Source: Alcanivorax sp.
GTDB lineage: Bacteria > Pseudomonadota > Gammaproteobacteria > Pseudomonadales > Alcanivoracaceae
Length of the DNA: 35,866 nucleotides
Assembly: GCF_014762765.1 (NCBI RefSeq)
Contig: NZ_JABURH010000210.1
Location: forward strand, 6,672-42,537
Direction: 5' to 3'
The notes under the pieces were generated by a model. It made no database searches, had not been told where the DNA came from, and was given only the letters and a program-made list of their open reading frames with translations. Position numbers and translations under genes: made by a program. This document shows positions 23,003 to 26,005 of the stretch, one piece after another (position 1 is the stretch's first letter; every line of letters starts with the position of its first letter).

Positions 23003-26000
23003 ATGAAAACGCTAACAGCCCGATCTTTCTTTCTGCTGTTACTGACCACCACCGTTATCACCGGCTGCGGTGGTAGCGGCGGCAGCAGCGATCCCGCAAA
23101 TCCCCCCACCGCCAACAGTGGCGATGATCCGGGAAGCGGCAATGACGGCGGCACCGTCACCCCGCCCACCGGCGAAGGCCGCACTTTCATCATCTCCCCG
23201 GGTGACAACGCCACCGAAGACATGGTCAACGCCATGATTCAACTGCGCCCCGGTGACACCCTGCAGTTCGACTGCGGCTATTTCGATTTGAATCAAGGGC
23301 TGCTGATTCAGGCAACCGAAGACGTACTCATCGAAGGCTGCGGCAAGGACAAAACGGTGCTGTCGTTCAAGAACAGCGCCAACGTCACCGGCCTGGAAGC
23401 CTTGAACATTCGCGGCATCACCGTGGAAGACCTGACCATCCTGGATTCCCCCGGCGACGCCTTCAAACTCAAGGGCGTGAAATGGGGCACCCTGCGCAAT
23501 GTGCGCGCCATGTGGTCCGGTGGCGGCGAGCCGATCACCGCCGAAAACTACAGCGACCGGCTGCATGTGGCCTGTACCAACCCGCCCTTCAACGAAGGTG
23601 ACCCTGCCCCCGATTACGTACCCAGTGCCACCAGTGGCCGCTATGGCATCTACCCGGTGGAATCGGAAAACATCCTGGTGGAAGGCAGTGAATCCGTTGG
23701 CGCCTCCGATGCCGGCATCTACGTGGGGCAGACCAACACCGCCATCATTCGCGACAGCCGTGCCATCTATAACGTAATGGGCTTTGAAATCGAGAATGTG
23801 CAGGGCGGCGAATACGACAACAACGTGGCCGAGTGTAATACCGGCGGTTTCCTGATCTACGACCTGGAAAACATCACCCAGTACGGCGACACCTCGGTGA
23901 TGCTCAACAATCTGGCCCGCAACAACAATACCTACAACTTTGCCCAAAGCGGTCTGGTGTCTGCAGTGCCGCGGGGCACCGGTTTTATCACGCTCGGCTA
24001 TGACAATATCGAGGTGTTCAACAACACCTTTGAAGACCACAGCACCGCCGCCATCATTTACACCAGCTATGAGCTGATTGATGGCAAGGGCAAGACCGCT
24101 GACAAGAAACTCGACCCTTATACCGAAGGTCTGCACATCCACAACAACGTGATGAAAAACTCCGGTTACGACCTGCCGCCACCGGACCTGGAGAAAGTGG
24201 CCAACGGGGAAGTGGAAAGTGTACTGCCTACCCTGATCGGCCTGAAGAACCTGCCCATCATCAATGATCCCACCCAGCTGCTGGGCAGCCTGGACAACAT
24301 CCTCAACCTGGGTAAAGGCGCCCATATTGTCTGGGACGGTCTGCGTGACGACCTGGACGCGGACTGCCCCTATCCGGTGGACAGCAACGGCGATCCAGTG
24401 CCCATGGACAGCAACGGCAAGCCTCTGCACACCAATGAACACCCCAATCCGAGCTGTCATTACAACGCCTACAAGTTCGATGAGAACAACGAACGCATCC
24501 AGCCCACCTGGGGATCCTGCATCCACGACAATGAATTCTCCGAGGACAGTGAGCCCTACCTGAACTTCCACGGCACAGATGGCCTTGAACTGGTGCTGGC
24601 CCTGGCCGAGCAGGATCTGTCGATCCTCTCGCCCAGTGGTCTGCTTGATGCCCTGGAAGGTCTGCTCAACATGCCCTCGGACACCAATCTGTCCGATCAC
24701 GACTGTCAGGCCCGTTTCGGCACACTGTTGCCATCACTGCCCCGAGTAGAGATCCCCCCCTTCGAACCCAGCGGCGATTTCGATCCTGCGCCGCCGCCGG
24801 AAGTGGTAGAAGAGCTGTGTAACACCGAGGTGGCCAGCGGCGAAATCAATCGCGACGCCCTGGCAGTAAACTGCCCGCGCCTGGAACAGTACAACCTGTT
24901 TGCCGACACCACCGATCCACGCAGCCTGCCCAATGAAGGCGGCGTGCCCTATGTCCTGAACACCAAACTGTTCTCCGACTACGCCACCAAATACCGGGTC
25001 GCCTTCGTGCCACCCGGCACCAAGGCGGTCTACCGGGACGGCCAGGGCGGCAGCAACCCCAATGGCGGTATCCACTTCCCCACCGGCACCGTGCTGGCCA
25101 AGACCTTCGCCTTCACCGATGAAGCCAACGGCAATGAGAGACTGGTGGAGACGCGCCTGCTGATCAAACGCACCAGCAGTAGCGGCAAACCCTTCTGGGA
25201 AGGCCTGCCCTATATCTGGGGTGAAGAGGATGGCCAACCGGTAGCCCGTCTGACCATGGGTGGCGGCAGCACCCCCGCCAGCTGGCACTACCGCGACAGC
25301 GACTCAGGCACCCTGCTCGCCGGCAGCACTGACAGCTACTCCGTACCCAACGCCAACCAGTGCATCACCTGTCATGGCAACGACGACCAGGCCGGCGGCA
25401 GCGCCCCTATCGGTCCCAAGCCGCGCAACCTGAACCGTGCCTACAAACCGGAATCTGCCTTCATGGGCAACACCGGCCAGGCTGGCTTCCCGCGTATCAA
25501 TCAGCTGCAGTACTGGACCGACGTGGGCATCCTCAGCGGCACCCCGGAGTTGCAGATCAGCAATGGCGTGGCCACCAATATCGAGCGCCTGCCGCACTGG
25601 AACGTGCCCGGCGACAGCGGTAACACCGCCAACTCCGATGCGGATATTGAAAGCCGGGTAAAGGCCTACCTGGAAGTGAACTGCCAGCACTGTCACAACG
25701 ACAAGGGCGCCGCCTCCAACACTGGCTACTACCTGGACCATTTCCGTGAAGTGGACGCCAGCTACGGCATCTGCAAGAAACCCACCGCCACCGGCGGCGG
25801 CTCCTGTGGCCGCCAGCATGTGGTGGTACCGGGCAGCGCGAACAGCTCCATCGTTTCCTGCCGTCTGGCCGCGGAAAACGACCCGCAACGGATGATGCCC
25901 CCCATCGCCCGCAGCGTGGCCCATGATGAAGCTACCACGCTACTGGATCAGTGGATTAATCAGGTAGTGGATAGCAGCTACACCAACGGCAGCGCCTGCA

Positions 26001-26005
26001 ACTAG
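23003..26005 (+). CDS. Lipoprotein fusing a parallel beta-helix (TIGR03805-type) to an SO2930-type diheme cytochrome c module (TIGR03806-type)
   Basis: A 1000-residue protein starting at the ATG preceded by GGGGA; an upstream in-frame TTG at 22991 is unlikely. The lipobox is VITGC. Residues about 58-350 are a right-handed parallel beta-helix (NIRGITVEDLTILDSPGDA, GIYVGQTNTAIIRDSRAIYN). Residues about 370-610 form an unassigned spacer with several cysteines and DSNGDPVPMDSNGK-type repeats. From about 625 on, the segment NEGGVPYVLNTKLFSDYATK marks the HNE_0200/SO2930 family, with two CxxCH haem sites (CITCH at 787, CQHCH at 894). In other bacteria these two families are, to my knowledge, usually neighbouring separate genes. 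Role unknown; a surface or periplasmic redox-linked carbohydrate- or polymer-binding function is a guess. Confidence 0.82.
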   Translation: MKTLTARSFFLLLLTTTVITGCGGSGGSSDPANPPTANSGDDPGSGNDGGTVTPPTGEGRTFIISPGDNATEDMVNAMIQLRPGDTLQFDCGYFDLNQGLLIQATEDVLIEGCGKDKTVLSFKNSANVTGLEALNIRGITVEDLTILDSPGDAFKLKGVKWGTLRNVRAMWSGGGEPITAENYSDRLHVACTNPPFNEGDPAPDYVPSATSGRYGIYPVESENILVEGSESVGASDAGIYVGQTNTAIIRDSRAIYNVMGFEIENVQGGEYDNNVAECNTGGFLIYDLENITQYGDTSVMLNNLARNNNTYNFAQSGLVSAVPRGTGFITLGYDNIEVFNNTFEDHSTAAIIYTSYELIDGKGKTADKKLDPYTEGLHIHNNVMKNSGYDLPPPDLEKVANGEVESVLPTLIGLKNLPIINDPTQLLGSLDNILNLGKGAHIVWDGLRDDLDADCPYPVDSNGDPVPMDSNGKPLHTNEHPNPSCHYNAYKFDENNERIQPTWGSCIHDNEFSEDSEPYLNFHGTDGLELVLALAEQDLSILSPSGLLDALEGLLNMPSDTNLSDHDCQARFGTLLPSLPRVEIPPFEPSGDFDPAPPPEVVEELCNTEVASGEINRDALAVNCPRLEQYNLFADTTDPRSLPNEGGVPYVLNTKLFSDYATKYRVAFVPPGTKAVYRDGQGGSNPNGGIHFPTGTVLAKTFAFTDEANGNERLVETRLLIKRTSSSGKPFWEGLPYIWGEEDGQPVARLTMGGGSTPASWHYRDSDSGTLLAGSTDSYSVPNANQCITCHGNDDQAGGSAPIGPKPRNLNRAYKPESAFMGNTGQAGFPRINQLQYWTDVGILSGTPELQISNGVATNIERLPHWNVPGDSGNTANSDADIESRVKAYLEVNCQHCHNDKGAASNTGYYLDHFREVDASYGICKKPTATGGGSCGRQHVVVPGSANSSIVSCRLAAENDPQRMMPPIARSVAHDEATTLLDQWINQVVDSSYTNGSACN

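What the first reader, a model, noticed from the sequence alone, without database searches (positions are those of the whole stretch)
23003..26005. One lipoprotein fuses a parallel beta-helix to an SO2930-type diheme cytochrome module
The protein joins two uncharacterised families (TIGR03805-type beta-helix and TIGR03806/HNE_0200-type with two CxxCH sites) that I know as usually adjacent separate genes. A gene fusion is strong evidence that the two act as one machine. It adds an unassigned ~240-residue spacer and a lipobox, placing haem at a membrane surface. Function is unknown.
Basis: partly seen in the sequence, partly recalled or inferred. Interest (0 to 1): 0.62.

Follow-up and report, generated by a model that had tools for sequence, protein, structure and literature searches.

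The report
Beta-helix lipoprotein fused to two-haem enzyme
An Alcanivorax-type bacterium makes one outer-envelope protein that joins a coiled beta-helix to a two-haem unit; the fusion is an old, recurring one, and its first haem domain looks like the cytochrome P460 kind known from ammonia and methane oxidisers, which gives a testable idea of what this unstudied family does.

Summary
In detail: 23003-26005 encodes one 1000-aa lipoprotein matching TIGR03805 (beta-helix, 230.7 bits, above cut-off) and TIGR03806 (diheme, 279.9 bits, full length but below its 313.3 cut-off). It is not a sequencing join: 34 of 46 sampled genomes of its family carry it, and named isolates too. Fusion is the minority state (7 fused, 32 adjacent, of 39 linked genomes in a 398-genome phylum sample).

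The "240-residue spacer" is mostly the beta-helix protein's own C-terminal cap plus insertions.

Two new points. (1) The first half of the diheme module looks like a cytochrome P460/c'-beta domain: ten best structural rows, hhalign E 3.2e-5 (best of 29 decoys 0.017), and a lysine kept in 106 of 108 rows aligning with McP460's haem-cross-linking Lys78. (2) Of 16 over-cut-off TIGR03805 genes examined that lack an adjacent TIGR03806, 12 sit beside a MauG/MbnH-type di-haem gene, 2 do not, 2 are cut by contig ends. The diheme module also fuses to sugar-dehydrogenase-like propellers, some with starch-binding modules.

Best reading: an outer-membrane oxidoreductase whose P460-like haem oxidises something presented by the beta-helix, a second haem relaying electrons. 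Chemistry and substrate are undemonstrated.

The parts
23003..23068 (+). signal peptide with lipobox, lipidated Cys22; residues 23-59 are a Gly/Ser/Pro-rich tether
   Evidence: sequence; pLDDT under 50 for residues 1-56
23180..24187 (+). right-handed parallel beta-helix, residues 60-395 (TIGR03805)
   Evidence: model pLDDT mostly over 85 here; VIA-align Z 31.9-22.8 in the 50 rows shown, among them alginate epimerase/lyase, AlgE4, RbmB, NosD, polygalacturonases
23642..23797 (+). conserved face of the beta-helix: Y214, Y217, D236, Y240, Q243, E262, E264, N265 on strands 214-219, 237-242, 259-264 and the turns beside them
   Evidence: stacking inferred from strand order and spacing
24188..24757 (+).
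   Evidence: alignment with 7 separate beta-helix proteins
24758..24868 (+). junction and N-terminal segment of the formerly separate cytochrome (residues 586-622)
24869..25387 (+). P460/c'-beta-like haem domain (residues 623-795): K700, E716, R718, W732, CxxCH 787-791
25610..25966 (+). class I-like cytochrome c domain (residues about 870-988): CxxCH 894-898, Met965 as likely second ligand
   Evidence: helices in the models; weak Pfam cytochrome c hits; Met965 108/108; ligation inferred
20472..22964 (+). upstream M19-dipeptidase-like lipoprotein, 38 bp before the fusion ATG, probably co-transcribed; an accessory, not a core part
   Evidence: Pfam M19; directly upstream of the fusion in 19 of the 20 sampled genomes that hold a close copy
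26164..26183 (+). intrinsic-terminator-like hairpin after the fusion gene
   Evidence: 8-pair stem with T tract; the scan found 15 such sites in the region against 6.3 expected, so a consensus match only

Best explanation
An outer-membrane-anchored oxidoreductase in one chain. The lipid anchor and tether hold a right-handed beta-helix whose conserved acidic/tyrosine face presents a ligand or substrate. The diheme half is a P460-superfamily haem domain (probably five-coordinate, possibly Lys-cross-linked through K700) joined to a His/Met cytochrome c domain. The P460-like haem takes electrons from, or oxidises, what the beta-helix presents (most likely a carbohydrate or a group on the beta-helix itself), and the second haem relays electrons to the cell's cytochromes. 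SHOWN by sequence: one gene, two domain families, lipobox, two CxxCH, linkage, invariant residues, partner replacement. SUGGESTED by several weak-to-moderate lines: P460-like fold. INFERRED: coordination, cross-link, direction of electron flow, substrate, which face of the membrane.
For: Both families in one ORF and linkage in 39 of 42 diheme-bearing genomes. P460-like domain: the ten best VIA-align rows of the diheme-only model are all cytochromes c'-beta/P460 (Z 5.5-4.4); hhalign E 3.2e-5, Prob 73%, against 0.017 for the best of 29 decoys and 0.4 for reversed P460; Pfam P460 touched by 18 of 49 members, best E 0.001. K700 conserved 106/108, E716 and R718 108/108; K700 aligns with the Lys that is McP460 Lys78, the cross-link lysine (Table 2 of PMC11928373, first part of section 6 read). 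Of 16 over-cut-off beta-helix genes examined without an adjacent TIGR03806, 12 have a MauG/MbnH-type di-haem gene directly beside them. The same diheme module is fused to a GSDH propeller in all 11 such ORFs scanned, three of them also with CBM26 or F5/8 domains. Beta-helix fold matches are largely carbohydrate-active enzymes. SO_2931, of the namesake pair, is described as an outer-membrane diheme lipoprotein (PMC5357785, passage read; the gene itself was not fetched).
Against: No member has a known substrate, spectrum or structure that I found. VIA Z of 5.5 is below the level (8) under which the tool warns of a common arrangement only, row 11 (a DUF3836 protein) ties with P460 rows at Z 4.4, and Foldseek gave no match under E 0.001 and no P460 among the 50 rows shown. 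The window protein itself does not touch Pfam P460 even at E 1; without the CxxCH the hhalign E is only 0.0017, and the decoys were not chosen to hold haem motifs. The P460 distal-carboxylate column is not cleanly matched (R718, or E716 two residues off). Reported P460 potentials (-300 to -424 mV, PMC11928373) would suit a PQQ partner badly. The 93 conserved beta-helix rows were mostly picked by patterns inside the conserved face, offset in part by a 28-row control. The residues that differ between TIGR03806-paired and MauG-paired helices may mark one old subfamily split rather than matching to the partner. Some beta-helix genes have no two-haem neighbour: L171 (face lost), L181 (face kept but for D236E), L121 (face kept).
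Confidence: 0.41

Rival explanations
1. Catalytic P460-type enzyme for a small nitrogen or oxygen species (hydroxylamine, NO, peroxide). The beta-helix only docks the enzyme to surface glycan or lipopolysaccharide and takes no part in catalysis.
For: Lys at the cross-link column plus invariant E716/R718; P460 proteins oxidise NH2OH and c'-beta are proposed to bind gases such as NO (PMC11928373, abstract and first parts of sections 4 and 6 read).
Against: The invariant face of the beta-helix and its frequent pairing with two-haem proteins suggest more than docking. No nitrogen-cycle gene appeared among the few neighbours scanned with Pfam.
Confidence: 0.21
2. Oxidative maturation: as MauG and MbnH are known (recalled) to modify a partner protein, the diheme half modifies residues of the beta-helix (conserved Tyr, Trp171) to make a protein-derived cofactor or metal site; the fusion lets it act in cis.
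For: A MauG/MbnH-type gene stands beside the beta-helix in 12 of 16 examined cases without TIGR03806, 2 more being cut by contig ends; Y214 and Y240 kept in both groups, W171, Y217 and Q243 differing with the partner.
Against: MauG-family proteins can also be plain peroxidases (recalled); the matches are below the TIGR03791 and TIGR04039 cut-offs; no modified residue is known; W171 is absent from the MauG-paired group; the differences may be one subfamily split.
Confidence: 0.17
3. Cell-surface electron conduit: a lipoprotein cytochrome that passes electrons out of or into the cell, the beta-helix being a spacer or adhesin.
For: SO_2931 is counted among the outer-membrane cytochromes of S. oneidensis (PMC12175506 passage) and was deleted with others in the omc-all strain (PMC5829830 passage); a type II secretion GspD is present in the window's genome.
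Against: Only two haems in a 1000-aa protein; many carriers are, as I recall, aerobic heterotrophs; the omc-all phenotype cannot be assigned to SO_2931 alone.
Confidence: 0.12
4. NosD-like role: the beta-helix delivers or binds copper or another metal, with the haem unit for redox control.
For: NosD among beta-helix matches (Z 27) and weak NosD hits.
Against: The same model matches many other beta-helices as well or better; no NosFY-type transporter was noticed in the window's neighbourhood, which was scanned only in part.
Confidence: 0.08

Closest known systems
TIGR03805/TIGR03806 gene pair (SO2930 family diheme cytochrome; HNE_0200)
   Same: both domains, order, secreted or lipoprotein, two CxxCH
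   Different: fused, with a long cap; diheme score under the curated cut-off. I recall, from no call, that the TIGR03805 record already says the two may be fused
Cytochrome P460 / cytochrome c'-beta superfamily (PF16694; McP460 6hiu, McCP-beta 6hih)
   Same: beta domain followed by CxxCH, P.G....K motif, conserved W, best fold rows
   Different: second haem domain, inserted loops, no DYVF-like end after the CxxCH, beta-helix or propeller partner; cross-link unknown; Pfam cut-off not reached
MauG/MbnH-type di-haem enzymes (PF03150; nearest TIGR04039, TIGR03791)
   Same: a two-haem enzyme beside the same beta-helix family
   Different: no match to this protein; there a separate gene, here P460-like plus cytochrome c in one chain
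Cellvibrio Cbp2D and Teredinibacter TERTU_2913/3803 (X158, X183, X132 domains)
   Same: extracellular modular proteins mixing c-type haem domains with carbohydrate-binding or propeller-like modules
   Different: homology to TIGR03806 not tested; no beta-helix mentioned in the passages read
GSDH-TIGR03806 fusions (L034-L039, L051, L162-L165)
   Same: same diheme module after the partner domain
   Different: propeller instead of beta-helix; L164, L165 with CBM26, L163 with F5/8 type C

Membership tests
TIGR03805 parallel beta-helix | score over the curated cut-off (141.5 bits) | tested here: met
   230.7 bits
TIGR03806 SO2930 family diheme cytochrome | score over the curated cut-off (313.3 bits) | tested here: not met
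   279.9 bits, though E 2.3e-83 over 1-313/314; the other long fusions (frames of 968 aa and more) listed are also under it
TIGR03806 SO2930 family diheme cytochrome | two CxxCH haem sites | tested here: met
   787-791 and 894-898; 108 of 108 rows
Cytochrome P460 superfamily | Pfam PF16694 over its cut-off (27 bits) | tested here: not met
   not reached by the window protein; 18 of 49 relatives touch it at E up to 1, best E 0.001
Cytochrome P460 superfamily | P460/c'-beta fold with C-terminal CxxCH | tested here: inconclusive
   ten best VIA rows, Z 5.5-4.4, 119-144 residues, rmsd 3.5-5.0; Foldseek no significant match; hhalign E 3.2e-5
Cytochrome P460 (proper) | lysine at the cross-link position | tested here: met
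   K700 aligns with McP460 Lys78, 106 of 108 rows
Cytochrome P460 (proper) | distal carboxylate | tested here: inconclusive
   R718 in the ungapped column, E716 two residues before; register uncertain
Cytochrome P460 (proper) | covalent Lys-haem bond | not testable with these tools
   needs protein
MauG/MbnH | TIGR03791/TIGR04039 or PF03150 match | tested here: not met
   absent (E up to 0.01)
Polysaccharide lyase/epimerase beta-helix | right-handed beta-helix fold | tested here: met
   Z up to 31.9
Polysaccharide lyase/epimerase beta-helix | catalytic basic residue conserved on the active face | tested here: inconclusive
   D236, E262, E264 invariant in 93 rows, no K/R/H invariant there, R250 92% and 28/28 in the control; active sites not superposed

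The most novel reading that the evidence does not exclude
TIGR03805 beta-helices are the usual redox partners of interchangeable two-haem enzymes. One partner type is a P460 haem (with lysine cross-link) wired to a cytochrome c, so P460 chemistry is widespread in heterotrophs outside nitrification; the enzyme oxidises the conserved Tyr/acid face of the beta-helix or a glycan held there, giving a new class of envelope oxidoreductase with a beta-helical active site.
Probability: 0.21. Interest if true: 0.82.

Novelty: new variant of a known kind. Interest (0 to 1): 0.55.

Why it matters
A strong TIGR03806 match was found in 42 of 398 sampled genomes of the phylum, linked to TIGR03805 in 39, yet I found no function for either. 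Reading the haem half as P460-like, and finding a MauG-type gene in its place elsewhere, turns an anonymous pair into a system with quick tests (spectra, haem-peptide mass, NH2OH/NO/CO binding, mass of the beta-helix). It would extend P460-type haem beyond ammonia and methane oxidisers and give S. oneidensis SO_2930/SO_2931 a hypothesis.

Tried and rejected
Sequencing-error join: rejected, conserved in many genomes and named isolates. New domain in the spacer: rejected, mostly the beta-helix cap. Conserved third gene: none found; the M19-like lipoprotein was seen next to the fusion in Alcanivorax-like genomes and 4 Marinobacter loci, AraC-type regulators near some loci, TonB-receptor-like genes near a few, by eye only. 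PDB sequence searches with either half gave nothing usable; profile searches gave weak hits to haem proteins and to beta-helix proteins, the best for the diheme half being a cytochrome c555 construct at E 5.6e-7 over the first haem; L096 beta-helix none. Foldseek with the diheme model: no match under E 0.001. Literature: six identifier terms gave 9 papers, none on function by title and by passages read in 5 of them; others (15 of 36 listed; 25 of 54 listed; 2; 0) gave nothing on the pair; 'P460' with 'beta-helix' 0 papers; 'MauG' with 'beta-helix' 13 papers, 10 listed, none on topic by title. 'Not in print' means only these searches of an open-access library. Link to Cbp2D/X132: considered, homology not tested.

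Caveats on counts. The 80 loci are the best of 557 by tblastn and so favour fusions; in them 41 loci are fused, 37 adjacent, 1 (L073) looks like a fusion broken by a frameshift and is labelled fused in the tree, 1 (L121) has a lone beta-helix. From the phylum sample I dropped 4 genomes whose only diheme match was weak (E near 1e-4 to 1e-3: G374, G379, G524, G558). MauG test: 16 genes over the TIGR03805 cut-off without an adjacent TIGR03806 in the two samples (L167-L179, L181-L183); 12 with a MauG-type neighbour, L171 and L181 without, L182 and L183 at contig ends. L180 (below cut-off) and L121 also have none; L184 is the cut fusion of G040.
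Full report
OBSERVATION. The window lies in an unnamed 3.5 Mb draft genome. The best named match to the protein is in Alcanivorax nanhaiticus (89% identity). ORF 23003-26005 (+) gives 1000 aa with a lipobox at Cys22 and CxxCH at 787-791 and 894-898. NCBIfam finds TIGR03805 at 230.7 bits (cut-off 141.5) and TIGR03806 at 279.9 bits over 1-313/314, below the cut-off of 313.3. The two halves are real, the second being a divergent member.

THE JOIN IS REAL AND OLD. In 94 genomes (counted by me from listed places and frame lengths) 37 have one ORF with both families, 34 of them in the window's family of 46; two more appear cut by contig ends. 27 genomes have an adjacent separate pair, many in addition to the fusion. 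In an even sample of 398 genomes of the phylum, 42 have a strong diheme match: 32 as a separate gene next to a beta-helix gene, 7 fused, and 3 (G380, G439, G559) in GSDH fusions. A quick tree of 108 diheme modules puts the window in a clade of 30 rows, all labelled fused, with 100% SH-aLRT; it holds Alcanivoracaceae, Marinobacteraceae, Nevskiaceae, Spongiibacteraceae, Moraxellaceae, Limnobacter and MAGs including a Deltaproteobacteria one. The fused label needs 4 changes over the tree, 2 of them forced by well-supported branches (LG+G4, short search, rows chosen as). Seven Shewanella loci and one Ferrimonas locus carry a fused gene followed by a separate diheme gene, so the namesake pair is probably of that form; S. 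oneidensis itself was not fetched.

THE SPACER. Aligned with 7 separate beta-helix proteins, residues 396-585 correspond to their C-terminal cap: the separate proteins share DG/GG and mostly C..N motifs and end at or shortly after a (C..)LP-like motif (two, L107 and L114, lack the Cys), while fused ones run on into the cytochrome's N-terminal segment. In short fusions the cap is compact; in the window's clade it holds insertions.

STRUCTURE. AlphaFold2 on 43 rows gave pLDDT 84.8 and pTM 0.86: disordered to residue 56, beta-helix, cap, a beta-rich domain ending at the first CxxCH, and a helical second haem domain. The diheme half alone gave pLDDT 85.0, pTM 0.86. The beta-helix matches alginate epimerase/lyase, AlgE4, RbmB, NosD, polygalacturonases and phage tailspikes (Z 31.9 to 22.8 in the 50 rows shown). 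Strands 214-219, 237-242, 259-264 and 281-286, which by order and spacing should stack in one sheet, have mean identity 0.889 against 0.577 over the domain (93 rows). Because the loci were picked with the patterns DAG[IV]YVGQ and NV[MAF]G[FI]EIE, I repeated this on 28 rows (window included) reached by HMM searches instead: 0.878 against 0.595, with D236 28/28, E262 27/28, E264 28/28, Y217, Y240, Q243, W171 and R250 28/28.

A P460-LIKE HAEM. For the diheme-only model the ten best VIA-align rows are all cytochromes c'-beta or P460 (Z 5.5-4.4, 119-144 residues aligned, rmsd 3.5-5.0), row 11 being a DUF3836 protein at Z 4.4; Foldseek alone was not significant. Pfam P460 is touched by 18 of 49 members at E up to 1, best 0.001, not by the window's own, in some spanning the beta domain and first CxxCH. 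hhalign of 107 N-halves against 17 genome P460/c'-beta proteins gave Prob 72.8, E 3.2e-5; an earlier run with fewer rows gave Prob 41.9, E 2.7e-4. 29 decoy families reached at best E 0.017 and reversed P460 0.4; with the haem motif removed E is 0.0017. The aligned core is FPxGTVxxK against (W)PDGAILxK. In McP460 (6hiu) that K is residue 78, counted back from Asp102 in the printed alignment; Lys78 and Asp102 are the cross-link lysine and distal carboxylate in Table 2 of PMC11928373 (outline and first parts of sections 4 and 6 read). K700 is conserved in 106 of 108 rows, E716 and R718 in 108, W732 in 107, Met965 in 108. E716 or R718 lies near the carboxylate column but the register there is uncertain. 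I put the P460-superfamily assignment at about 0.75-0.8. That review holds none of the words diheme, fusion, fused, Shewanella, beta-helix or SO2930.

PARTNER REPLACEMENT. (a) The same diheme module is fused to GSDH-type propellers: L034, L039, L051, L035-L038 and L162-L165, where CBM26 (L164, L165), F5/8 type C (L163) or InlB-like repeats (L162) are also present; the propeller of L034 matches hedgehog-interacting protein and sugar dehydrogenases by sequence. Its PQQ binding is not tested, and another GSDH-like propeller, Ttpf08450-X173, failed to bind PQQ (PMC10916295, passages read). (b) I fetched 16 TIGR03805 genes over the cut-off that lack an adjacent TIGR03806. 12 have a MauG/MbnH-type di-haem gene directly beside them (56-71% identical to that of L175); 4 of these were scanned, all matching PF03150 over its cut-off and nearest TIGR04039 and TIGR03791 below theirs. 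8 of the 12 also have a two-domain cytochrome c gene (two scanned). L171 and L181 have no two-haem gene in the fetched stretch, L182 and L183 end at the contig edge. In the 12, Y214, D236, Y240, E262, E264 and N265 are kept as in the TIGR03806-paired group, while W171, Y217 and Q243 (93/93 each there) are gap, F and M (12/12 each); L182 shows the MauG-type signature, L183 the other, L171 has lost the face and L181 keeps it but for D236E. This may be partner matching or one old subfamily split; I cannot separate the two.

CONTEXT. An M19-like lipoprotein gene ends 38 bp upstream; a close copy lies directly upstream of the fusion in 19 of the 20 sampled genomes that have one, but other fusions lack it, so it is an accessory. 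A terminator-like hairpin follows at 26164. The genome has a type II secretion GspD, so surface display is possible but not shown.

MECHANISM. I commit to an envelope oxidoreductase: the beta-helix presents a substrate, the P460-like haem oxidises it, the His/Met haem relays electrons (0.41). The fold matches, and the propeller/CBM fusions of the same haem module, favour a carbohydrate; the MauG-type replacement favours modification of the beta-helix itself (rival, 0.17). The low potentials reported for P460 haems argue against simple acceptance from PQQ. Shown: architecture, linkage, conservation, replacement. Not shown: haem state, cross-link, substrate, direction of electron flow, membrane face.

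VERDICT. The fusion itself is a known sort of thing (I recall, without a call, that the TIGR03805 record mentions fusions). What is new here, to the extent of my searches, is the P460-like assignment and the MauG-type replacement.

Noticed in passing
window 20472-22964: M19-dipeptidase-like lipoprotein with an extra N-terminal region, directly upstream of the fusion in Alcanivorax-like and some Marinobacter genomes; function of the pairing unknown
   Followed up: partly
L167-L170, L172-L179: TIGR03805 beta-helix genes beside MauG/MbnH-type di-haem genes, 8 of 12 with a two-domain cytochrome c gene: a second pairing, not found in my one literature search
   Followed up: partly
L162-L165: long proteins joining CBM26, F5/8, PKD or InlB-like repeats, a GSDH propeller and the same diheme module
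   Followed up: partly
L058:5701-11904: two full-length fused genes in tandem in a Salinisphaerales MAG
   Followed up: no
L046 (G002), also G007, G012, G013, G019, G023, G026, G030, G035, G037: a separate beta-helix gene with two diheme genes in tandem beside it
   Followed up: no
L073:5172-8286: looks like a fusion gene split by a frameshift in a MAG contig
   Followed up: no
window 13415-14203: glycoside hydrolase family GH114 match (E 5e-85)
   Followed up: no
L121:8806-10107; L181:6283-7527: TIGR03805 beta-helices with no two-haem gene in the fetched stretch although the conserved face is kept (wholly in L121, but for D236E in L181)
   Followed up: partly
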